Shown in pieces: positions 925 to 16,430 of a stretch of 16,430 bases of DNA. The stretch's first letter is position 1. Each line of letters starts with the position of its first letter. Origin of the DNA: Candidatus Heimdallarchaeota archaeon LC_2 (GTDB taxonomy: Archaea > Asgardarchaeota > Heimdallarchaeia > Heimdallarchaeales > Kariarchaeaceae); assembly GCA_001940725.1 (NCBI GenBank), contig MDVR01000159.1:1-16430 (forward strand). The letters are read 5' to 3'. Under the pieces are notes generated by a model. It ran no database searches, was not told the DNA's origin, and saw only the letters and a list, made by a program, of their open reading frames with translations. The translations under genes and the position numbers were made by a program.

Positions 925-2139
925 TCACAGGTGAACTTCTCGAACTCTATGCAATGGGAGGACAATCAGTTCTGGGTTATCAACTTGTACTTCAGTTTCT
1001 TTTTTCGTGATTAGGTATTTTTTTTTCACAAACTTGCTATTTAGTAAGGATCTAACAAATTTATTTGTAACAATATTACGCATTTTAACTTCTACTCCTT
1101 TCTCTAGTTCTTCACCAATGATGAAATCAATTTCTTTCCCTCTTTCGTTCCAAAAATATTCTGCAGATAACTGGAAGGCAACCTCGGTTTCAGCCTTTTT
1201 ACCAAATTCAACGGGGTATGGGGAAATATACCAATGTAGGGATGTATAAAATGGATAATATCGTTTATGACGTTTTTCACTCTTCCGTGGGTTTTTTGAG
1301 TAATTGTACACTTTTCTTATCAATAGGGATTGCTCAAGAATCTGTAAATATTGTTGTACAGTACGCCTATCCAAACTGAGTTCCTGTGAGAGATCGAGTG
1401 TGATAATCACATCGCCAGGTGCTTTGCAAATCAACCTAAAGATTGTATCTATTGGAGTTGTGTCTCGTATATTATAAAGTCTAATCAGATCATTGTTTAT
1501 CACCTTATCAACTAATTGAGAGATATACTCTTTTTCAGCTATCTTTGACGATACTAATTCAGGTAATTGATGATCCATATATTGTAAATAGGTCCTCCAT
1601 AGATTGTAATCAGAAACCGGTTTAATTTTTTTCATATCTAGATATTCAGTAAACGACAATGGAGGTAGAAAAAGCTCGAACTCTCTACCTGCAAGACTTT
1701 CCTTACCCCTTCGGAGATCAGAAGCTGATGAACCACTTATGTATATTTTGCAATCCAGATTATCATACAAAATTTTTACATGGGAAGCCCAATTTTCCAA
1801 ATATTGTATTTCATCAAATATTAAATAGTAATTACCTCGATAAGGAAGACTTAGATGAGAAATGTATGCATTATAAATACTCAACAAGTCATCCCTATGA
1901 AGATCAAGGCTGAAATAGAGAATTTGTCGTCTATCAACCCCCTTCTCAGATATTAAGTGATTAATCAATTGTTGTAACATAGTAGTTTTACCCACCCGTC
2001 TTGGGCCCACTAACGTAATAATAAATTTATGATTCAGTGATTCTATCAAGTCTGAGTACATCTCACGATAGAAAAGAGGGACATCGAAAGGGGCCTCCCA
2101 ATGTTGATTTTGTAGAAATAAATGATCTTCTAATGACAC
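925..2139 (-). CDS. AAA-type ATPase with C-terminal nuclease-like domain (AAA_14/DUF4143 type)
   Basis: The 404-residue protein has a Walker A motif GPRRVGKT (45-52), a Walker B LIFDE (106-110) and a sensor-like strand ISGSSA (134-139). A winged-helix-like stretch follows (about 240-285, with LSLDRRTVQQYLQIL). The C-terminal part has EIDFIIG (336-342) and VEVK (349-352), the D...E-x-K arrangement of the PD-(D/E)xK-like fold seen in DUF4143 proteins. This order and length are typical of the abundant archaeal ATPase family AAA_14 + DUF4143. Their cellular role is poorly known and is often placed with mobile or defence genes. The start is GTG at 2139. An in-frame TGA at 2152-2154 leaves no earlier start, and a TATA element about 25 nt upstream suggests a leaderless transcript. 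The gene reads away from the toxin-antitoxin pair, 248 bp from it. The family call is confident; the substrate is unknown. Confidence 0.9.
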   Translation of the reverse strand: MSLEDHLFLQNQHWEAPFDVPLFYREMYSDLIESLNHKFIITLVGPRRVGKTTMLQQLINHLISEKGVDRRQILYFSLDLHRDDLLSIYNAYISHLSLPYRGNYYLIFDEIQYLENWASHVKILYDNLDCKIYISGSSASDLRRGKESLAGREFELFLPPLSFTEYLDMKKIKPVSDYNLWRTYLQYMDHQLPELVSSKIAEKEYISQLVDKVINNDLIRLYNIRDTTPIDTIFRLICKAPGDVIITLDLSQELSLDRRTVQQYLQILEQSLLIRKVYNYSKNPRKSEKRHKRYYPFYTSLHWYISPYPVEFGKKAETEVAFQLSAEYFWNERGKEIDFIIGEELEKGVEVKMRNIVTNKFVRSLLNSKFVKKKYLITKKETEVQVDNPELIVLPLHRVREVHL

Positions 2140-2387: not shown

Positions 2388-2867
2388 TTAAAGTATAAAT
2401 TTCCTTGATCTACTAACACCAAAATTTTTAGAAAGTTGATAAGTATCAACTAAATTTGAGTAATCATTAGTATCAACGAATCCGTTAATCCATCTGTCTT
2501 CTGAAACTAAGATATCTGCTGAAACTATAGCAGTGGCCAAAATTAAACATTTTATGAAATCGGTGTGATATTTTCTTAATTCCATTGATAATTGCGTAAT
2601 TAAACTAGAGCTCGATAAATGAATTTCAGAAAAATCCCCACCCTGAGTTAAACTTTGTATCCCTCTCAATATTCGTTGGGGATCAAGATTTCCTTTTTCA
2701 CATTCTTTTGCCCCTTTTGCTTGTAATTCAAAAAGAGTGATTGTTGAATAAAGTAAATCATGGCTATCTTTATGATCAAGTAGTTTCAATAAATAATTTG
2801 GATCGAGATTCGAATTTGAAATTCCTATAATAGGTAAAAAGTAACATGTATCCAAAAATATTTTCAA
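2388..2867 (-). CDS. PIN-domain toxin (VapC-like ribonuclease)
   Basis: The 159-residue protein starts with MKIFLDTCYF, the PIN first strand carrying the first acidic residue (D6). Further acidic positions fit the metal site: E47 in TLFEL, D103 in HTDFIKCLILATA, and D118 with E123/D124 in ADILVSEDRW. PIN toxins of type II systems cut RNA with a Mg2+ or Mn2+ centre. The start is TTG at 2867, which overlaps the antitoxin stop by 4 nt (TTGA) and is preceded by GAAGAGG 7 nt upstream inside the antitoxin gene. This points to translational coupling. It is somewhat longer than a typical 130-140 residue VapC, with a basic tail SRSRKFIL. The toxin role is inferred from domain and pairing; the RNA target is unknown. 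Confidence 0.85.
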   Translation of the reverse strand: MKIFLDTCYFLPIIGISNSNLDPNYLLKLLDHKDSHDLLYSTITLFELQAKGAKECEKGNLDPQRILRGIQSLTQGGDFSEIHLSSSSLITQLSMELRKYHTDFIKCLILATAIVSADILVSEDRWINGFVDTNDYSNLVDTYQLSKNFGVSRSRKFIL

Positions 2868-3115
2868 GTTTGAGCCTCTTCACTAAATTGTTTTCTATCT
2901 TCTTCAAATTCTTGTTGTGAGATGTTAATCAGTTCTTTATTTTCATCTAAAATACTCCTAACAGTTGCAATGGGCTCTACTATGAGTTTTCCATTGTAAA
3001 TGTAGTATAGAATTTTTCTCCCAGCCTCTAATCCCAATTTTTTCCTTAATTTCATTGGGGGAAATAACTCCCCTTTTGAACCAACCTTAGCCATATATTG
3101 ATCATTTATAGTCAT
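2864..3115 (-). CDS. AbrB/MazE-like antitoxin
   Basis: The 83-residue protein has a SpoVT/AbrB swapped-hairpin DNA-binding domain at about 8-50 (KVGSKGELFPPMKLRKKLGL, then KILYYIYNGKLIVEPI). An acidic, helical C-terminus (about 52-83, DENKELINISQQEFEED) would bind and block the toxin. It starts with ATG at 3115 and overlaps the downstream PIN gene by 4 nt. Antitoxins of this kind usually repress their own operon with the toxin as co-repressor. A TATA box 27 nt before the ATG implies a leaderless message. The length and gene order, antitoxin first, are typical of VapBC-like systems. Confidence 0.85.
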   Translation of the reverse strand: MTINDQYMAKVGSKGELFPPMKLRKKLGLEAGRKILYYIYNGKLIVEPIATVRSILDENKELINISQQEFEEDRKQFSEEAQT

Positions 3116-3325: not shown

Positions 3326-6300
3326 TTGGTAAAATTTAGAAATAATATTACTTTTATCCTTATGCTACTGCAGTTGTTATTTGCACTTACAGCATCCGCA
3401 CACTACCCTTATGAAAATGAAATGAATCGTCTCCATCCCAACTTAGGGTCCAATTTAGAAGTTAAAGATATAATTGAAAAATCAATAGTTTTCAAAGGTA
3501 GGAGTCAAACTTATAATGTGAGTCACATTACAGATTCTTTCATATATGATCCTATAATTGTGAATTTTTATATTTATCAAAGTTCACTAGAAAATGAAAA
3601 AATGGATATATTTGATGCACAGAACCTCGATACACAACTTGAGTTAACATTTTCCCAAAACTCATCAGAAGGATACATGGAAATTGGTAATAGAATATTT
3701 ACTGTTCCTCAATATAATTTTAACCGTCGAGAACTTACTGTCAGCATTGACCCATCACTTGAATTTTATAGTTTAAGAACCTGGTATAACACAACTGATA
3801 AAATTGAAGATTTGAAAGACGATGAAAATGCATTCATTGATATTGAGATACAATTGAAAATTACTAGTGCTGGTTGGGGATACTTAGAACCATTGCATCT
3901 ATTTCTCGAAGGTGAGTTATTTACTTCTAGGACTAATTATCTTCAACCTGATGATCTTCACCATCCAATATCTGGCTATTTAGAATCATTCCCCAGGTAT
4001 TTTGTGATGAATAATTCAGTCTGGTTAGATCATAGGAAAATCTATGTGCCAATATCATTATCGTTGACATCCGGAATTTTTGAAAATTTATTAAAAACTC
4101 ATAATTATACTTCTTCCCCTACTTTCGACCTTTTTATCCGTTTGAGAATTATTGAAAATCAGTTTGAAATTGACGAAAATCCTCCCGATATCAGAATCTA
4201 CCATAATCAAAAGAAATTTGTCAGTAATCGAACTTCTGATTTCATCGATTATCATCTTGATATCACTCCTGGGATTGAACAGATACTTGAATTTGATTTA
4301 TATAATTACGGGTACTCTACCTATTTTTTCATTTATTCTATGTTTATTGAAATTCCACCTCTTTTCGTTGAATCGTTACCATCTAATTGGGATATATTTT
4401 GGACTTCCATGAAGGAAAATGCCCTGATTATTTTTATTTTCTTTGGTTTAATTCTTGTAATTGTACAAAATCCATATATGGAAAAACTTGAATATCATAA
4501 ATCCCCAATTAAAAGTTCTAAGAAAAATATCTCCAGACCTTTTGTTGATAGCTCCAAATATAACATAAATCAGGATAAGGGAGACGGAGATAAAGCGTCA
4601 ATAATCGATCCTGGTGTACAAAAAAGAGACTTATTGAGTAAAGTAAAAGCAGAAAATACTGAGCAATCTAACTCAAAAGTAAATCATATAGGTAACTGGA
4701 TCACCGATAGTGAAGGGTACCGTATTAGCCTTGATAATTATGAAAAGATTGAAGTTATAGATGACTTACTCGAAAAGGCTGTCAATCGGTTTCTAGAAAA
4801 ATCGGGAGCTGACTATTTACGGAGTAATTTTCATAATCGAGATTCCTTTTCAACCAAAAATAACTTGGATGAAGAAAGTTCAACGGATATCCAGCGACAT
4901 ATTGGAATAAATGCAAACGATGAAAATGATCCAGCAAACACTAGTGAATTCAAATCAATTTTCCCTTATTCTCATATATATGAGAGGGAAAAATCAGCGA
5001 AAGAAGCTTATGAATTAGCAGCTCATACAGATGATGGGGATCAAATTAGATATCAAAGTCCAATCAATTATAAACCTAATCACTCTGAAATTGAGCCATC
5101 TAATACACGATTAGAACAACGGAACAATAATACTGATGAAATTGACTATGGCCATACTAATCCCAACAGGGAAATTGAGGGCAAAATCAATGACGAGATA
5201 AGTCAAAAGAGCGATTCTCAAGGTCCAAGTACAAACGAATGGAATGAAAACCCGATTGACCATGAATTGGAAGATGCCGGACTAGAGCAGCCTGATATTG
5301 AGTTCATTGATCCAAAACTAGACCATTTTGAAGAAGAAGAAATTCAAACGATAGACCATTTTGATGAAGAAGAGATTGAAAGGAAGCGTACAATTCAAAG
5401 ACATCCTGATATAAATGATTTCTTTTGGTCTGAAGATTATGAAATAGAAATAAATAATGATAGGGCGGCTCATGAGAAAAGGATTGATGATTTTGAATCT
5501 GCGAAATCTGATGTTGATTCATTTACAAAATATGATCATGTTGACCATGAAATCAAACGAAAAAGGGATGAGATTGACTTTCATCATCCTGAAGTTGAGA
5601 CTATTATTGATCAAGGTGAAATTAAGGAACATTTCAAGGAAGGAGTGGATCAGTTAGATGATCGTACCATAGCAATTCCACCTATTGAGAAAAAAGTTGA
5701 ACCAGAAAAAATTAAGAAAACCGAAAGGAAAATTGCTGAGAGTGAACCTACACTCCCTTCATTTGGTGTTTCAGATGATATAATAACAGAAATTCTGGAA
5801 TATATTGCTGAAGGAGTGGATATCGACGTGATATATACTAGAACTGGGATTGATATCAATTTCATTTCACTTCTTTTTGAGAAGATGGAAATTGCACAGA
5901 TCATGTATGAGATCCAACAGGAGGCCGAGTTTGAACAGTATCACAAGGAGGTTGATGTAAAACCGCATGGTTCAAAAGTCGTTTCGGTTGATGCTGGAGG
6001 TTCTGAGGGGATTGAAATTGATAAAATTGAGGAGAGTGCGGAGATTGAAGGATTTGGGGAGATTGAAAAGTTTGATCCGTCAACAAATTTGAAAGAGCTA
6101 TTGGAACCTATTCCAGTGATTACTTTTACACAGGAGATTTTGGATATTGAGGTCCCATTAAGTGCGGCTCATTTTAAGAAGGTGGTTCCGAAGGCTGAGG
6201 ATGTAGATAAGTATAGAAGATCGCCTTATATTGAGGCGAATACACTGCGAGGGGTGAAGGGTTTGGTGAAGTTTCAAGATGCTGCCAGAATGCACTTTTT

Positions 6301-9300
6301 TAGTTTAGTGTATGCTGCTAGGAAGGCGCAGAAAGTAGTGGATGATATGAAAGACAATAAAATTAAAGAAATTCCACCTGCATGGAAAATCTTTGCTGAG
6401 TTTGAATTTGGGACCGTCCATGATTCAATTTCGAATTCTCTTCCAAGTCAGAAATTGCATGTTTATGAGTATTTAGGATTTCATAGTTATAGGACTGATC
6501 CAGAAATAAACAAAAAATTAAATTACATGTACCAAGCAATATTGCGATTTTGGAATCCTGGAAATAATAGTTTTATTAACCAAAACATAGTCGGTGAATG
6601 GATTAAAGGTAATGATTTCAATAATTTATATCGAGAAAAAATTTTATTTTACCCAAATAAAGATGAAAAAAATAAGGAAGCTTTTCATCTATTATATAAC
6701 CAAATCATAGCTAGAATTGCCAGTAATTATTTTCTATATTCCAATGCTAGCAATAGAGAAATTCATGAAAAAATTTGGGATTACCCATTCTTACTAAAAT
6801 ATCATCCACGACTCATTTATAACTTTCGCGAAACAGATGATGATGGCACTGGAACAGATATTGAAATCTCTGTCCTCTACAGTGATGATATTCTAGAAAT
6901 ATACAAAAAAATTAATTTTCAAACATATAGAATCGAAATAAAAAATCTTGCAAAACTAGATATTGAAGATTACAGAGTAGGAGGTAAACCTATTACAATT
7001 CATAAGAAATGGTCTGTTTCTCTGATCAATAAATTACTAAAGATAGGTCTGCCAGGGAAGAAGTCGGACTATAAATCCTTGATTAATACTAAGACACTGA
7101 ATAAAATTCCCGAACCTGTTTTTAGAAATCTTAGTAGAATAAATTATTCAAGATTCATAAATTTAAATAATATATATAGATCTGGTAAAAACACGAATGT
7201 GAGTTCTAAATATCTCACTTTTATGAAAACAGAAGATATTGGAGCACATTTCTATGATAGATTATCAAGAAACAGTGTGAATCTTGGATTGAATAAAGAA
7301 TTCAACATAATTAGAGGTAAATTTGGATTCAATGATTTATTCGATCCGTCAGTTTCGAAACATTATGCCAAATTTAGGACTGGTTTTCATTTTAAAGAGG
7401 AAAAAGGAACAACTAAATGGGATGTATCTTTTGAGGTAAAGGGACTTCAAAACGGGCAGCGGATTTCTATTGATTTAATTAATGCAATTTCAATACAAGA
7501 TCCATTTGTGGGTGAAATTTATGCATATCATTTTGATAATGTATGGAAGATAAACCCTGATATTCCCCCTAAGGATTTAGAAAGAATTATTGGAATTGCC
7601 AGATTTGAGACTTTCAAAAGAGAATATCAATTAATTCGCAACCAATTAATTGAACTTGCAGCAACTGGAGTCCTTGTTCAACTAAATGATGGACAAAATC
7701 TAACTTTGGGTTCAAATCTAGAAAGTGAATTAACATTATTGACTGGAATGCAAAATAATCAAATCTCGATGATTTCTCAGTTTGATGAAGGTAAACATAA
7801 TTATCTCAATAACACATATTCATTAATAGTCCCCTCATATGAAATTGGAGGTGGAAAGCACTTAAAATCAATTACCGTGAAAATTACTGCAGATACTTTT
7901 GGAAAACCTGGAGCAACCATTATGCCCTTAGGTGGGATATTCGGGAATAACAGTGTTAGTAGTTTTAGTTTAGGAATTTTATCTTCTGATATACCAGAAT
8001 GGAAGAAATTAAGTCCTAAATCACAGCATGCAATTTTGTCTGCATATTCAATCAATCTTTGGGATACTGATAGATATTATAGAAAAACCATACGTAGTTT
8101 CGATAAAGATAGTGAGTTAGAAAATTTAAACACCTTTACTAATCAAAGATTTCAAACAACCTGGATGATAATGATTAATCAATACAAATCATTAATCAAC
8201 AAATTCACCAATACACCTACCACCGATCCGCTGAAAATAATCTATGAGCTAAAAATTAATGAATTTCAATCTAAATACCAAGATTCTCTTTGGGAATTGC
8301 TGAATGAAGAATCTCCAGAGCTTATTAATATTATGATACAAGATCTCTTAGCAAGATTCGTAGGAAATTCTCCAAATATTGGCATTAGCCAATCATGTAG
8401 CATTGCATGGAATCGTTCATTAAATCAATCCAGAATTATGAAAAACAAGGGGATCAAAGATGCATTTTTACTTGCTGGGAAGTCTACTAGTAAGACAATA
8501 AGAAATATCAAATCTATTATTAATAATTTTAAGGATCCTCGAATATTAAAGGGGTATGATACATTTTTTATAGATAATGAATTTGCAAACAAAGAAAAAT
8601 TAGAATTATTTGAAAAGAAAAGAATGGATAAGGATGCTTACTTATTTGCTAATATTATGGAGGATTTTAAAATAACTACATTATATTCACCATATACCTC
8701 ATTGTATTTATTTCCTGATCCAAAAGGTGGTACGGACAGAATACAATATCAGTCCAATCCCTCAAATCGATATAAAGACCTTAGCATTAAGAAGAATAGG
8801 AAATCACTTGAAAAATTAGCAAAAACAATGCTTATAAAAAATGAAAATACAATCTCGAAGAGTTATAATGATCTTGTGTCAATATATATGGATGTATTTA
8901 AGCCATCAGAATATTATCACTCCGTTTTTCCTACACATGGGGATTACAATAAAGTTACCAATAATGGGTCTGAGCTTAAACCTGAGCATTTGTCATTAGG
9001 ACGAATAGCTGGAGTAGAAAAAACTGGATTATCTTTGACAAGTCAAGGAAACCTAATAATAATTGAAGTAACTAATCCAAAATTATTAGCAATAAGTCTA
9101 AGGGACTTCATTTATGTTGCAGAAGCAAAATCAGTTTCTAAATATTCTGATTTAAACTATAAACCTGCGCACATATCAGATCCATTTCTCTGGGATAGGT
9201 GGTTAGGAAAATTCGAATCCCGAGCTGATTTGACAGACAAAAATTTAAATTTAATACCTGTGTATGATGAAACAAATGATCCACCACTCAGATTCGCCTT

Positions 9301-10084
9301 GGAAGTAAGAGAAAATAATGTAAAATCAATGAATCTTGAGCAACTTCTCATTGGACGTGAAATGGGCAAACACTATAATATGTTGTTTTTACCAAACCGA
9401 GGAATACATTGGAAAAATTTCAAAACTAGAAATTTGGGTTCTGCAAGGGGAGCTTGGTTGTTTTACATAGTCAAAATTGAAAACGCTATCAGGATGGGAA
9501 CAAAATGGCCTTCGCTTACCGCTGCAAGAAAAAGTAGTGAATTTGTCAAAGAAGTTAAAATTTGGGATAAAACATTATTTTGTAAAAAGGGTCAAGGCCC
9601 AAATTCAAGTATGGTTACCTTTCAAGAATTTGAAGAAACCATAATTTCCACAAAAGAGGTTACAAGTTTTAAAAATAAATTCGAAGGATCAAACGAAAAG
9701 TATCAATCTTTATCTGAATACATGGCATTTTCGTTCAATCTTGAAGTTCTATTAAAATCAAATAGAATGAAAGTTAGACCAGGCAGGTTTGGTAAACCGA
9801 AGTATTATTATTTCGTTGATAAGCATAAATATGAAAAAACATTTTTGGGGATGAATTGGACCATCTACAAATTACCTTACAGAATGCCCTATAGTGATAC
9901 AAAATTATTAAATGAATTAAAAGAACTAATATTGAGTGTGAAAGACAATTGGAAAAATAGTGATTGGTTAAAGAAACTAATTCAGTTTTCAAGGGATAGA
10001 ATAAATAAACATCAAGGATGGGCATTCAATAAATTCATTTCCCTAATGGAATCTTATAATAAAAATGAAACAGCTGATGTTTGA
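3326..10084 (+). CDS. Giant single-pass membrane protein, 2252 residues, family not recognised
   Basis: A signal peptide (1-25: FILMLLQLLFALTASA, A-x-A cleavage before H26) leads into a beta-rich ectodomain (about 26-360) with six N-x-S/T sequons (N64, N112, N155, N229, N260, N301). One membrane segment follows (about 365-381, ALIIFIFFGLILVIV), then a Lys-rich stretch marking the cytoplasmic side. Residues about 385-815 are acidic and low-complexity, with the repeat DHFEEEEI/DHFDEEEI (from 666). Residues 816-860 resemble a helix-turn-helix (ILEYIAEGVDIDVIYTRTGI). The remaining ~1300 residues match nothing I know; D1178 with EIK at 1204-1206, and D1366 with EVK at 1370-1372, are weakly nuclease-like. 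The start is TTG at 3326, because an in-frame TGA lies at 3317-3319; the next candidate is ATG at 3362 (M13), which would leave a short signal peptide. The frame is open throughout. A surface-sensing or adhesion protein with a large internal effector is a guess. Confidence 0.85.
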   Translation: MVKFRNNITFILMLLQLLFALTASAHYPYENEMNRLHPNLGSNLEVKDIIEKSIVFKGRSQTYNVSHITDSFIYDPIIVNFYIYQSSLENEKMDIFDAQNLDTQLELTFSQNSSEGYMEIGNRIFTVPQYNFNRRELTVSIDPSLEFYSLRTWYNTTDKIEDLKDDENAFIDIEIQLKITSAGWGYLEPLHLFLEGELFTSRTNYLQPDDLHHPISGYLESFPRYFVMNNSVWLDHRKIYVPISLSLTSGIFENLLKTHNYTSSPTFDLFIRLRIIENQFEIDENPPDIRIYHNQKKFVSNRTSDFIDYHLDITPGIEQILEFDLYNYGYSTYFFIYSMFIEIPPLFVESLPSNWDIFWTSMKENALIIFIFFGLILVIVQNPYMEKLEYHKSPIKSSKKNISRPFVDSSKYNINQDKGDGDKASIIDPGVQKRDLLSKVKAENTEQSNSKVNHIGNWITDSEGYRISLDNYEKIEVIDDLLEKAVNRFLEKSGADYLRSNFHNRDSFSTKNNLDEESSTDIQRHIGINANDENDPANTSEFKSIFPYSHIYEREKSAKEAYELAAHTDDGDQIRYQSPINYKPNHSEIEPSNTRLEQRNNNTDEIDYGHTNPNREIEGKINDEISQKSDSQGPSTNEWNENPIDHELEDAGLEQPDIEFIDPKLDHFEEEEIQTIDHFDEEEIERKRTIQRHPDINDFFWSEDYEIEINNDRAAHEKRIDDFESAKSDVDSFTKYDHVDHEIKRKRDEIDFHHPEVETIIDQGEIKEHFKEGVDQLDDRTIAIPPIEKKVEPEKIKKTERKIAESEPTLPSFGVSDDIITEILEYIAEGVDIDVIYTRTGIDINFISLLFEKMEIAQIMYEIQQEAEFEQYHKEVDVKPHGSKVVSVDAGGSEGIEIDKIEESAEIEGFGEIEKFDPSTNLKELLEPIPVITFTQEILDIEVPLSAAHFKKVVPKAEDVDKYRRSPYIEANTLRGVKGLVKFQDAARMHFFSLVYAARKAQKVVDDMKDNKIKEIPPAWKIFAEFEFGTVHDSISNSLPSQKLHVYEYLGFHSYRTDPEINKKLNYMYQAILRFWNPGNNSFINQNIVGEWIKGNDFNNLYREKILFYPNKDEKNKEAFHLLYNQIIARIASNYFLYSNASNREIHEKIWDYPFLLKYHPRLIYNFRETDDDGTGTDIEISVLYSDDILEIYKKINFQTYRIEIKNLAKLDIEDYRVGGKPITIHKKWSVSLINKLLKIGLPGKKSDYKSLINTKTLNKIPEPVFRNLSRINYSRFINLNNIYRSGKNTNVSSKYLTFMKTEDIGAHFYDRLSRNSVNLGLNKEFNIIRGKFGFNDLFDPSVSKHYAKFRTGFHFKEEKGTTKWDVSFEVKGLQNGQRISIDLINAISIQDPFVGEIYAYHFDNVWKINPDIPPKDLERIIGIARFETFKREYQLIRNQLIELAATGVLVQLNDGQNLTLGSNLESELTLLTGMQNNQISMISQFDEGKHNYLNNTYSLIVPSYEIGGGKHLKSITVKITADTFGKPGATIMPLGGIFGNNSVSSFSLGILSSDIPEWKKLSPKSQHAILSAYSINLWDTDRYYRKTIRSFDKDSELENLNTFTNQRFQTTWMIMINQYKSLINKFTNTPTTDPLKIIYELKINEFQSKYQDSLWELLNEESPELINIMIQDLLARFVGNSPNIGISQSCSIAWNRSLNQSRIMKNKGIKDAFLLAGKSTSKTIRNIKSIINNFKDPRILKGYDTFFIDNEFANKEKLELFEKKRMDKDAYLFANIMEDFKITTLYSPYTSLYLFPDPKGGTDRIQYQSNPSNRYKDLSIKKNRKSLEKLAKTMLIKNENTISKSYNDLVSIYMDVFKPSEYYHSVFPTHGDYNKVTNNGSELKPEHLSLGRIAGVEKTGLSLTSQGNLIIIEVTNPKLLAISLRDFIYVAEAKSVSKYSDLNYKPAHISDPFLWDRWLGKFESRADLTDKNLNLIPVYDETNDPPLRFALEVRENNVKSMNLEQLLIGREMGKHYNMLFLPNRGIHWKNFKTRNLGSARGAWLFYIVKIENAIRMGTKWPSLTAARKSSEFVKEVKIWDKTLFCKKGQGPNSSMVTFQEFEETIISTKEVTSFKNKFEGSNEKYQSLSEYMAFSFNLEVLLKSNRMKVRPGRFGKPKYYYFVDKHKYEKTFLGMNWTIYKLPYRMPYSDTKLLNELKELILSVKDNWKNSDWLKKLIQFSRDRINKHQGWAFNKFISLMESYNKNETADV

Positions 10085-10123: not shown

Positions 10124-10744
10124 TTAATCAATATGTAATCCTTTTCTCACCATATTATGAAATTCGTGATACTTCTCATCTAACAAAATTTTATGAAGAA
10201 TTTCTTTATCATTTATATGATACAAAAGCTCTTTCTCACAATTTTCAGATTTATAATTCCTCTTTTCCATATCAGATCTTGGATAGAGTTTTAAAATTTT
10301 CTTAAAATAATGATATCTTGCATCATCATCCAAATAATGAACCAAGTGTTGGTATGTATCTTGAGTTATGATGTAGGATTCCCAATTATATACCTCACTC
10401 AAATACAAGTCAATAATCTTTTTTACATTTTCGAGTGATGTTATTTTCGATGCAGCTGCTTCCCCAGGTGCATTATAATCAAAATCTTCATCACCTTGTG
10501 GTGAAAGTAATCTATCACTGTTTAATACAATTTCAACTAGAATTCGTTCATCATCGGTTTGCACAGCTATTTTATGCAATTCCCATATACCCCATTTCTT
10601 TTCTGTAAGAATGGTTTTATTGAACTCTTCATAATCTATATCGTAATCTGGTTGATAGTACTTATCTCCTACCTTCAAGGTAACTCCATAGAAATAAGGA
10701 TAACTATCTCGATCATCAAATGGTCTGTATGTAATACTCTTCAT
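10124..10744 (-). CDS. Hypothetical protein, 206 residues
   Basis: I do not recognise this family. The N-terminal half (about 1-100) alternates short strands rich in Tyr and Asp (YPYFYGVTLKVGDKYYQPDY) and looks like a compact beta-rich domain. The C-terminal half (about 105-206) is predicted helical (ENVKKIIDLYLSEVY, DDDARYHYFKKILKLY, DKEILHKILLDEKYHEF) and could be a small helical-repeat or protein-binding unit. There is no signal peptide or membrane segment, so it should be cytoplasmic. It starts with ATG at 10744; a TATA-like TCTATATATG lies about 31 nt upstream, so any leader is very short. It converges with the giant gene, 39 bp from its end, so the two are not co-transcribed. Its coding character (no low complexity, sensible start and promoter) makes it a real gene. 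Confidence 0.75.
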   Translation of the reverse strand: MKSITYRPFDDRDSYPYFYGVTLKVGDKYYQPDYDIDYEEFNKTILTEKKWGIWELHKIAVQTDDERILVEIVLNSDRLLSPQGDEDFDYNAPGEAAASKITSLENVKKIIDLYLSEVYNWESYIITQDTYQHLVHYLDDDARYHYFKKILKLYPRSDMEKRNYKSENCEKELLYHINDKEILHKILLDEKYHEFHNMVRKGLHID

Positions 10745-10835: not shown

Positions 10836-11360
10836 TCATTTTATTTGATTCAACTCTAATATTTTTTGCTCTAATTTCAACATCTCAAAATCGTATTTAC
10901 CATGATATGGAGAGTTGTAAATTATATAAGTTGTCAGATCTTTCGCTTCAATCATTTTTTCATTCCAGTCTTCTCTGACTCCACTACTTCTTTTTCCTGA
11001 TAAACTAAAAACCCCTTGATATATCTCCAAGAGCTTTTTTCTTACACTCTGGACTGAGAGACAAATTTCTTCTGGACTAAATTTTTTATAATGAGGGCAA
11101 TATGTGATGGCCTTCATGATGCTAATTATGATAGATCGCAATAAATCAGATAACGGACCATTTAACAACACTTCATGTTCCATTGCCCCTATTTTCATCT
11201 CATTCCTTGTTTCTGTCAATAATTCTTTTATTGCTATCTTCAGCTCAGCTGATTTCAGTTTTTTCCGTTTGGATCTATTACTCAATACCTTTTGGATGGT
11301 TGTTAGATAGTACGTATAGCCCCTATGTGCATTGATTGCGATTGAATTAACAGGTGAAAT
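10836..11360 (-). CDS. Hypothetical helical protein, probable ATT start
   Basis: Family not recognised. From ATT at 11360 it has 174 residues, mostly helix-forming, with a basic segment SNRSKRKKLKSAELK and a hydrophobic stretch LLRSIIISIMKAITY too polar for a clear membrane span. The conventional start would be TTG at 11285 (149 residues). The frame stays open upstream, and the extra 25 residues (SPVNSIAINAHRGYTYYL...) look coding. A perfect AAGGAGGT (11375-11368) lies 7 nt before the ATT, with no ATG or GTG nearby. A palindromic TATA box at 11435-11444 predicts a leader of about 50 nt. I therefore prefer the ATT start. It lies 91 bp upstream of the neighbouring gene at 10744 on the same strand, so they could share a message. 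Confidence 0.65.
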   Translation of the reverse strand: MSPVNSIAINAHRGYTYYLTTIQKVLSNRSKRKKLKSAELKIAIKELLTETRNEMKIGAMEHEVLLNGPLSDLLRSIIISIMKAITYCPHYKKFSPEEICLSVQSVRKKLLEIYQGVFSLSGKRSSGVREDWNEKMIEAKDLTTYIIYNSPYHGKYDFEMLKLEQKILELNQIK

Positions 11361-11901: not shown

Positions 11902-12423
11902 TCATTTTCTCTTATCGATTAATGTTTTTCCGATGTGTTTGAAAGATTCGGCAACATTAGTTCCAGTCAAAGCGGATGTTTCAATATAATCTATTGCACC
12001 CATTTCTTTTGCTTTAGTAGTACCTTCTTCTGTTGATATTTCTCTGAGATCTTCTAAATCATTCTTATTTCCTACAAGGATGAATATTTGGTCCGGACTC
12101 TCTTCTTTTGCTTCATTAATCCAAGTTTGAGCGTTATTGAAAGATTCTCGCCTGGTGAGGTCAAAAACTACAAGAGCACCCATTGCGCCACGGAAAAACA
12201 TCCCTCGCATGACTTTAAAGCGATCTTGACCTGCGATATCCCACAAGCTATAGCAGATCTTTGTACCCTCAATAGTTTCATACCTTGAGTACGGCTCCAT
12301 CCCAATCGTCATCAGGTAAGCTTTTTGGAATTTATTATGAACAAAACGGTGAACAAGAGCCGTTTTACCCACTGCACCGTCACCCAGAAGTAAAATTTTG
12401 AAAGTGTAACTGTAATTGCTAAT
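11902..12423 (-). CDS. Ras/Rab-like small GTPase
   Basis: All five G motifs are present (numbered from the ATT start): G1 GDGAVGKT (14-21), G2 Thr39 in MTIGMEP, G3 WDIAGQDRF (61-69) with the catalytic Gln66, G4 NKND (119-122) and G5 ETSA (148-151). With 173 residues it is the size of a minimal Ras-family domain. It should be an active GTP switch. It ends in IDKRK with no Cys, so no prenyl anchor. ATT at 12423 is preferred: GAGGAG sits 6 nt upstream, it places G1 at the usual distance from the N-terminus, and the TATA box at 12476-12484 would start transcription near 12454, downstream of the only standard start, TTG at 12471 (189 residues). Ras/Rab-like GTPases of this type are abundant in Asgard archaea. 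Partners are unknown. Confidence 0.9.
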   Translation of the reverse strand: MSNYSYTFKILLLGDGAVGKTALVHRFVHNKFQKAYLMTIGMEPYSRYETIEGTKICYSLWDIAGQDRFKVMRGMFFRGAMGALVVFDLTRRESFNNAQTWINEAKEESPDQIFILVGNKNDLEDLREISTEEGTTKAKEMGAIDYIETSALTGTNVAESFKHIGKTLIDKRK

Positions 12424-12429
12424 TTTTAT

Positions 12430-12435
12430 CTCCTC
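12430..12435 (-). promoter_or_regulatory. Shine-Dalgarno of the GTPase gene, before an ATT codon
   Basis: On the minus strand GAGGAG is followed by 6 nt (ATAAAA) and ATT at 12423. The spacer and codon (ATAAAAATT) are identical to those before the 174-codon gene. If TTG at 12471 were used, this would merely encode Glu-Glu. Confidence 0.55.
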
Positions 12436-12475
12436 AGTTGTGGTTTGTTTGTTATAATTCCGATTGATCAACTCA

Positions 12476-15432: not shown

Positions 15433-15861
15433 ATGAGCCTTCAAGAAGTTAATGATTTCTGGCAGGAAGGTAATTTAGATGAAGCACTTGTATCAGTTGA
15501 AAATATAGATGAAGATGTAAGGATTGAAGGAAATATTATAAAAAGTAATATTCTCCGGTCGAAAGGAAAGTACAAGATGGCATTGAAATTAGCTGAAGAT
15601 GCACTGCAGGAAAGCAGGGCTAAACAAAATAAGTTATTGGAACTCGAAGCTTTATTATCAAAAACATATTTATTAATGCGACCGGATAAGATAGAGGTTA
15701 CGACATCAAGTATCGAAGATATTGAAGAATTGTTTGAAGAGCTGAAAGATCTGGAAGAAGAAAAGTTTAAAGAATTATTATCAACATTGCTTATAATTAA
15801 AGGTAGTACAGCAAATGATATTGGTAACTTTACAGATTCATTAGATTTTTACAATCAATAG
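15433..15861 (+). CDS. TPR-repeat protein, cut short at a repeat junction
   Basis: The 142 residues show tetratricopeptide-like helices: VNDFWQEGNLDEALVSVEN (6-24), ILRSKGKYKMALKLAEDALQ (about 40-59) and GSTANDIGNFTDSLDFYNQ (about 124-142). A more coiled acidic stretch (DIEELFEELKDLEEEKFKEL) lies between. TPRs mediate protein-protein contacts. The frame stops (TAG, 15859-15861) at the junction where the 424-bp tandem repeat begins again, in the middle of a TPR motif. The true protein is therefore probably longer and its 3' part is not in this window. ATG at 15433 follows a weak GAG, and a possible TATA (GTTTTAAATT) lies about 35 nt upstream. TPR proteins with several repeats are common in Asgard archaea. 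Confidence 0.75.
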   Translation: MSLQEVNDFWQEGNLDEALVSVENIDEDVRIEGNIIKSNILRSKGKYKMALKLAEDALQESRAKQNKLLELEALLSKTYLLMRPDKIEVTTSSIEDIEELFEELKDLEEEKFKELLSTLLIIKGSTANDIGNFTDSLDFYNQ

Positions 15862-16430
15862 CCTTCAAGAAGTTAATGATTTCTGGCAGGAAGGTAATTT
15901 AGATGAAGCACTTGTATCAGTTGAAAATATAGATGAAGATGTAAGGATTGAAGGAAATATTATAAAAAGTAATATTCTCCGGTCGAAAGGAAAGTACAAG
16001 ATGGCATTGAAATTAGCTGAAGATGCACTGCAGGAAAGCAGGGCTAAACAAAATAAGTTATTGGAACTCGAAGCTTTATTATCAAAAACATATTTATTAA
16101 TGCGACCGGATAAGATAGAGGTTACGACATCAAGTATCGAAGATATTGAAGAATTGTTTGAAGAGCTGAAAGATCTGGAAGAAGAAAAGTTTAAAGAATT
16201 ATTATCAACATTGCTTATAATTAAAGGTAGTACAGCAAATGATATTGGTAACTTTACAGATTCATTAGATTTTTACAATCAATAGCCTTCAAGAAGTTAA
16301 TGATTTCTGGCAGGAAGGTAATTTAGATGAAGCACTTGTATCAGTTGAAAATATAGATGAAGATGTAAGGATTGAAGGAAATATTATAAAAAGTAATATT
16401 CTCCGGTCGAAAGGAAAGTACAAGATGGCA
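15437..16430. repeat. Perfect 424-bp tandem repeat, about 2.3 copies, to the window end
   Basis: The block starting GCCTTCAAGAAG at 15437 recurs at 15861 and 16285, each 424 bp apart. Copies 1 and 2 are identical on reading, and the third is identical for its 146 bases up to the end. The unit is not a multiple of three, so each copy shifts frame and the TPR gene is broken at the first junction. A perfect, frame-breaking repeat at the very end of a sequence is best explained as an assembly loop. A very recent tandem duplication is the alternative. Confidence 0.97.
16001..16285 (+). pseudogene. Second copy of the TPR gene segment
   Basis: This 94-codon frame begins at an internal ATG (MALKLAEDALQ) and repeats residues 49-142 of the TPR protein exactly. 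It lacks the true start and ends at the next repeat junction. It is a product of the 424-bp repeat, not a separate gene. Confidence 0.8.

What the first reader, a model, noticed from the sequence alone, without database searches (positions are those of the whole stretch)
3326..10084. Giant surface-to-cytoplasm membrane protein of unknown family
A 2252-residue archaeal protein combines a secreted, sequon-rich ectodomain, a single membrane pass, about 430 residues of acidic linker and about 1400 residues of cytoplasmic protein. The topology resembles a eukaryotic single-pass receptor. I recognise no family in the ectodomain or the large C-terminal part. It may be a lineage-specific sensing, adhesion or effector protein.
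Basis: partly seen in the sequence, partly recalled or inferred. Interest (0 to 1): 0.75.

Follow-up and report, generated by a model that had tools for sequence, protein, structure and literature searches.

The report
Giant orphan Asgard membrane protein
An uncultured archaeon from the group nearest to complex cells appears to make a 2,252-residue protein with a small part outside the cell, one membrane crossing and a very large part inside; no relative of it was found, so what it senses, holds or does is still open.

The parts
3326..10084 (+). Giant single-pass membrane protein gene, 2252 aa
   Evidence: Open frame; chance about 5e-85
3326..3400 (+). Signal peptide, residues 1-25, ASA cleavage site
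   Evidence: Hydrophobic stretch 8-26, mean 1.88; charged n-region and ASA read from the sequence
3401..4408 (+). Ectodomain, residues 26-361
   Evidence: Position between signal peptide and membrane helix; model poor, mean pLDDT 37.6
3881..4363 (+). Possible jelly-roll domain, residues about 186-346 (a lead only)
4409..4465 (+). Membrane helix, residues 362-380
   Evidence: Mean hydropathy 2.27; positive-inside: K+R 0 before, 7 after
4475..5785 (+). Acidic, probably disordered linker, residues 384-820
   Evidence: Net charge -46; few hydrophobic residues
5768..5890 (+). Short three-helix segment, residues about 815-855
   Evidence: Blocks at pLDDT 56-68 in an otherwise poor model; sub-threshold CPSase_L_D3 match, E 0.012-0.095
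6113..10081 (+). Inner module of unknown fold, residues 930-2252, net +40
   Evidence: Charge; no relative
10124..10744 (-). Orphan neighbour, 206 aa, convergent to the giant gene
   Evidence: No family match over cut-off; 0 of 8 related genomes
10836..11285 (-). Orphan neighbour, 149 aa
   Evidence: DUF2096_N only below cut-off; 0 of 222 Asgard genomes

Best explanation
A lineage-specific (orphan) type I single-pass membrane protein of a Heimdallarchaeota-like archaeon. Shown from sequence: an intact frame, a signal peptide, one membrane helix, and a tail of about 1,870 residues that should lie inside. Inferred: the small, probably beta-rich ectodomain binds something at the cell surface (a glycan or another surface protein); the acidic, probably disordered linker is a long tether that may space or shield the mildly basic inner module; and the inner module of about 1,320 residues is the working part. 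It either passes surface binding on to the cytoplasm (sensor) or anchors an inner structure to the surface (tether).
For: Frame and length. Two hydrophobic stretches only, signal peptide and one helix; charge pattern. Codon usage homogeneous along the frame. Host: Ras-like gene 77% identical to a Heimdallarchaeota MAG's, 24 of the 33 loci found are titled Heimdallarchaeota or Heimdallarchaeum. No relative. Faint jelly-roll signal in the ectodomain.
Confidence: 0.5

Rival explanations
1. The gene is cargo of a mobile or defence island, comparable to the giant genes carried by Heimdallarchaeal aloposons, and serves an element or anti-virus function rather than host signalling or adhesion.
For: Three neighbouring orphan genes between 3326 and 11285; next to them a MazE-like/PIN-like pair (below cut-off) and an AAA_14/DUF4143 ATPase that matches PADLOC's candidate defence family PDC-S01 at E 2.1e-56. 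Giant genes on Heimdallarchaeal transposons are in print (PMC8813620, passages).
Against: No tRNA in the window, no tandem giant, no ParA-like gene among the genes scanned; no similarity to the 12 frames of 2000 aa or more in the PR6 stretch. No integrase or transposase among the proteins scanned. The contig is too short to see the ends of an element.
Confidence: 0.3
2. The frame is an assembly chimera or a fused pseudogene of a surface protein and an unrelated cytoplasmic protein.
For: GC at codon position 1 is higher in residues 601-1050 (0.50-0.57) than in 1051-2252 (0.30-0.45); the contig's 3' end has an exact 424-base repeat that looks like an assembly fault.
Against: No codon-usage difference between parts in 10 of 10 tests at P 0.05; the composition shift follows the acidic amino acids; the repeat starts 5.3 kb after the frame ends; no stop in 2252 codons.
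Confidence: 0.06
3. The inner module descends from an Abi/HEPN-type RNA-cutting anti-phage protein (residues about 935-1055), so the whole is a membrane-tethered defence effector.
For: Sub-threshold Abi_2 matches in 5 of the 8 pieces that hold all or most of this region (E 0.006-0.018, best 17.3 bits against a cut-off of 25.6) and PHROG 38079 on overlapping residues (E 0.0023 and 0.0028; 0.052 on the whole protein).
Against: The other pieces holding the region, and the whole protein, gave no Abi_2 match. HMMs from 6 and then 7 real Abi-family proteins score the segment no better than shuffles of it. PHROG 38079 gives equal bit scores in 4 of 222 Asgard genomes. No R-x4-6-H motif in 935-1130.
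Confidence: 0.04

Closest known systems
Giant proteins of Asgard archaea, including aloposon Otus and Ephialtes (PMC8813620; abstract and passages seen)
   Same: Very long, lineage-restricted proteins without known domains in Heimdallarchaeota-like archaea; [quoted passage not shown]
   Different: 2252 aa, single gene, no tRNA or ParA-like gene seen beside it, no sequence likeness to the 12 frames of 2000 aa or more in 2.8 of 3.33 Mb of PR6. In that set 5 of 12 have a signal-peptide-like start and a helix at the very C-terminus, so nearly all of their length lies outside; here about 83% lies inside.
Single-pass receptors of eukaryotes
   Same: Layout only: signal peptide, ectodomain, one helix, inner part.
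   Different: No recognisable signalling domain; the inner part is more than five times the ectodomain.
Carbohydrate-binding jelly rolls (CBM35, CBM6, CBM29 and the like)
   Same: Possible overall sandwich shape of residues about 186-346 in a poor model.
Heimdallarchaeal beta-helix/TSP3 proteins with one internal helix (PR6, L095)
   Same: Signal-peptide-like start, one later helix, an inner tail.
   Different: Known ectodomain families (NosD/Beta_helix, TSP3) and tails of 437-472 residues.

Membership tests
Type I single-pass membrane protein (topology class) | N-terminal signal peptide | tested here: met
   Hydropathy peak 8-26 and ASA site; by hydropathy and eye, no dedicated predictor was available
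Type I single-pass membrane protein (topology class) | Exactly one membrane helix, positive side inside | tested here: met
   One further peak over 1.7, at 362; K+R 0 before and 7 after
Aloposon giant proteins (Otus/Ephialtes) | Tandem giant genes of 3,000-6,000 aa | tested here: not met
   One 2252-aa frame in the window; feature from PMC8813620
Aloposon giant proteins (Otus/Ephialtes) | tRNA integration site downstream of the giant genes | tested here: inconclusive
   0 tRNA in the window, but only 6.3 kb is held downstream
Aloposon giant proteins (Otus/Ephialtes) | MinD/ParA-like ATPase among four genes upstream | tested here: not met
   The three genes upstream scanned are on the other strand: MazE-like, PIN-like and AAA_14/DUF4143
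Aloposon giant proteins (Otus/Ephialtes) | Sequence similarity to the Heimdallarchaeum giants | tested here: not met
   No match better than shuffles among frames of 1500 aa or more in 2.8 of 3.33 Mb of PR6; that the tandem giants there are Otus/Ephialtes is inferred from size and pairing
Abi_2 / HEPN | Score over Pfam's cut-off (25.6 bits) | tested here: not met
   Best 17.3 bits
Abi_2 / HEPN | R-x4-6-H catalytic motif in the domain (recalled) | tested here: not met
   None between 935 and 1130; elsewhere at 686-688, 747, 2011 and 2223
Carbohydrate-binding jelly rolls (CBM35/CBM6-like) | Jelly-roll fold | tested here: inconclusive
Carbohydrate-binding jelly rolls (CBM35/CBM6-like) | Carbohydrate binding | not testable with these tools
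   Needs a binding assay
Eukaryotic-type receptor with a signalling domain | Recognisable cytoplasmic signalling domain | tested here: not met
   No Pfam or NCBIfam family over cut-off, whole or in pieces

The most novel reading that the evidence does not exclude
A class of receptor-like protein not described before in the archaeal group near the origin of eukaryotes: a carbohydrate-binding-type ectodomain coupled through one helix and a long acidic tether to a 1,300-residue cytoplasmic machine of a new fold, passing surface recognition inward without a two-component kinase.
Probability: 0.2. Interest if true: 0.75.

Novelty: new variant of a known kind. Interest (0 to 1): 0.4.

Why it matters
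Giant orphan proteins are known in Asgard archaea, but in the one chromosome examined here the anchored ones carry their helix at the very end and so hold nearly all their mass outside the cell (5 of 12 giants). A protein with about 1,870 of its 2,252 residues inside, tied to a surface domain by one helix, would be a candidate for communication between surface and cytoplasm in the archaea nearest to eukaryotes, and a test case for a large fold without known relatives. The weight of this rests on finding a second copy.

Tried and rejected
Rejected: (1) Abi_2/HEPN in residues 935-1055: sub-threshold hits, not supported by HMMs of real Abi proteins against 2000 shuffles. (2) Other Pfam hits below cut-off (DUF7073, CPSase_L_D3, DUF4706, DUF2396, Cpf1_PI-like) and NCBIfam hits at E 0.13-0.21: judged chance. 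(3) Weak genome hits: I inspected L039 and L041, L050, L051, L053 and L056 and L209 by their translations and judged them chance (transglutaminase-like, TldD-like, flavoprotein-like and others, names by recall); the other rows were not inspected. (4) Synteny: contigs around the ATPase relatives in three genomes show no giant gene. (5) Internal repeats in the protein: none reported at BLASTP E 10. (6) The 5541-aa PR6 giant as a precedent for the layout: its 'helix' holds E, N and D and is doubtful, its tail has no strong acidic block, and tail against tail scores no better than shuffles. (7) PDB sequence searches of pieces: best E 0.71 and 0.85, both ribosomal proteins. (8) sigma-70-type promoter scan: 70 sites against 64.8 in shuffles, uninformative.

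Limits: no genome is held for the window. The genome search uses a loose first look, and no genome known to hold the giant served as positive control; the ATPase rang in 3 of 8 genomes. One search scored only the 7,994 candidates that share most words. Residues 1171-2252 were not modelled. The Abi HMMs come from one kind of 'Abi family protein'; other Abi_2 subfamilies are not excluded. The PR6 stretch is 2.8 of 3.33 Mb and contains 56,244 N. The layout screen used hydropathy alone. Papers were sought (full-text term searches of open-licence PMC papers only); PMC8813620 was seen as abstract and passages, the others as listings.

Full report
What is there. The window appears to be a whole contig of 16,430 bases: the protein database lists that as the longest contig of the only match. 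The frame 3326-10084 + codes for 2252 residues from a TTG to a stop, with a TGA in frame 9 bases upstream. Its length is far beyond chance.

Anatomy. Residues 1-25 signal peptide; 26-361 outside; 362-380 membrane helix, mean hydropathy 2.27; 381-2252 inside by the positive-inside rule (K+R 0 before, 7 after). Residues 384-820 are acidic (net -46) and poor in hydrophobic residues, 820-930 are also acidic (-19), and 930-2252 are net +40. The ectodomain has 6 sequons where shuffles give 3.35 (P 0.10), so 'sequon-rich' is not supported. No internal repeats were reported.

One gene or two? Five parts of the frame show no difference in synonymous codon usage at P 0.05 in 10 of 10 pairwise tests; against five neighbouring genes 23 of 25 tests show none, the two exceptions being against the Ras gene. 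GC at codon position 1 is raised in residues 601-1050, as the acidic amino acids there would cause. I see no sign of a false join, but one contig cannot exclude it.

Host. The Ras-like GTPase at 11902-12471 is 77% identical to one in a Heimdallarchaeota MAG, and 24 of the 33 loci found with it are titled Heimdallarchaeota or Heimdallarchaeum. The AAA_14/DUF4143 ATPase at 925-2139 has relatives in 3 of 8 of those genomes: 64% and 66% identical in two, and in two pieces of 64% and 56% with stops in a third. The window is therefore from a Heimdallarchaeota-like Asgard archaeon.

Relatives. Three searches of 5.8 billion proteins, with residues 930-2252, 1-390 (E up to 10) and 1799-2252 (E up to 10), return only the window's own protein. 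Pfam, NCBIfam, PHROGs and PADLOC give nothing over a curated cut-off, and nothing below E 0.002, for the whole protein or for the pieces scanned. PDB sequences: nothing below E 0.7. Viral contigs, genome contigs, phages and plasmids: none. Asgard genomes: 0 of 17 with residues 930-2252 at E 1; 6 of 227 with the whole protein, best E 0.014; 21 of 222 with the last 402 residues, best E 4.9e-4; 1 of 8 with residues 801-1152, E 0.19. E-values are per genome, so a few such hits are expected among hundreds of genomes; the seven that I inspected look unrelated. An unfiltered phmmer run against 2,174 frames from 2.8 of 3.33 Mb of the PR6 chromosome gave a best E of 0.023.

The Abi lead. Pfam's Abi_2 came up at E 0.006-0.018 on residues about 935-1055 in some pieces and not in others, and PHROG 38079 at E 0.0023 and 0.0028 on residues about 966-1064. 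HMMs built from 6 and then 7 real Abi-family proteins score the segment no better than shuffles of it; the PHROG gives equal bit scores in 4 of 222 Asgard genomes; the recalled catalytic motif is missing there. Rejected, with the reserve that one kind of Abi protein was tested.

How unusual is the layout? In the PR6 stretch, 387 frames have at least 500 residues; 52 have a signal-peptide-like start plus exactly one later helix, and 36 of these 52 have tails under 60 residues. Two tails exceed 800: one in a 5541-aa giant whose putative helix contains E, N and D and is doubtful, the other in a HerA-like ATPase with two hydrophobic stretches near its N-terminus. A tail of about 1,870 residues has no clear precedent there. 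One genome, 84% seen, is a narrow base for this.

Surroundings. The giant gene and two small genes on the other strand (10124-10744, 10836-11285) form an orphan block of about 8 kb: the 149-aa protein has no match in 222 Asgard genomes, the 206-aa protein none in 8; neither search has a positive control. To the left lie a MazE-like and a PIN-like gene (both below Pfam's cut-off) and the ATPase; to the right Ras, cupin and DUF1330 genes. This would fit a variable island. Published aloposons carry tandem giants of 3,000-6,000 aa, a ParA-like gene and a tRNA target (PMC8813620, passages); none of these was seen here, though the contig is short.

Conclusion. The anatomy is fairly secure at sequence level, and orphan status is as firm as these collections allow. 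What the protein does is not shown. I favour a surface-binding tether or sensor that reaches the cytoplasm (0.5), with island cargo in second place (0.3).

Noticed in passing
window 15436-16430: Exact repeat units spaced 424 bases (starts 15436, 15860, 16284), running to the contig end; 424 is not a multiple of 3, so the TPR-like frame is broken by it. Looks like an assembly fault.
   Followed up: partly
window 2388-3115: Overlapping MazE-like and PIN-like genes, a possible toxin-antitoxin pair, both below Pfam's cut-off.
   Followed up: no
window 925-2139: AAA_14/DUF4143 ATPase that matches PADLOC's candidate defence family PDC-S01, E 2.1e-56; in one related genome it lies in two pieces with stops.
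   Followed up: partly
window 4152-4412: An 86-aa frame inside the giant gene in another reading frame, rich in hydrophobic residues; probably a chance by-product.
   Followed up: no
L174-L175, L182-L183 and L184-L185 (G013 2207504-2236911, 2361052-2390357, 2409596-2437404; the last end lies in L185): Three tandem pairs of giant frames (3170-6099 aa) in the PR6 chromosome, presumably the published aloposon/HeimV2 giants (inferred from size and pairing).
   Followed up: partly
L095 6000-8591 and 13561-16752: PR6 proteins with NosD/beta-helix and TSP3 matches, one later hydrophobic helix and tails of 437 and 472 residues; possible receptor-like proteins of the lineage.
   Followed up: no
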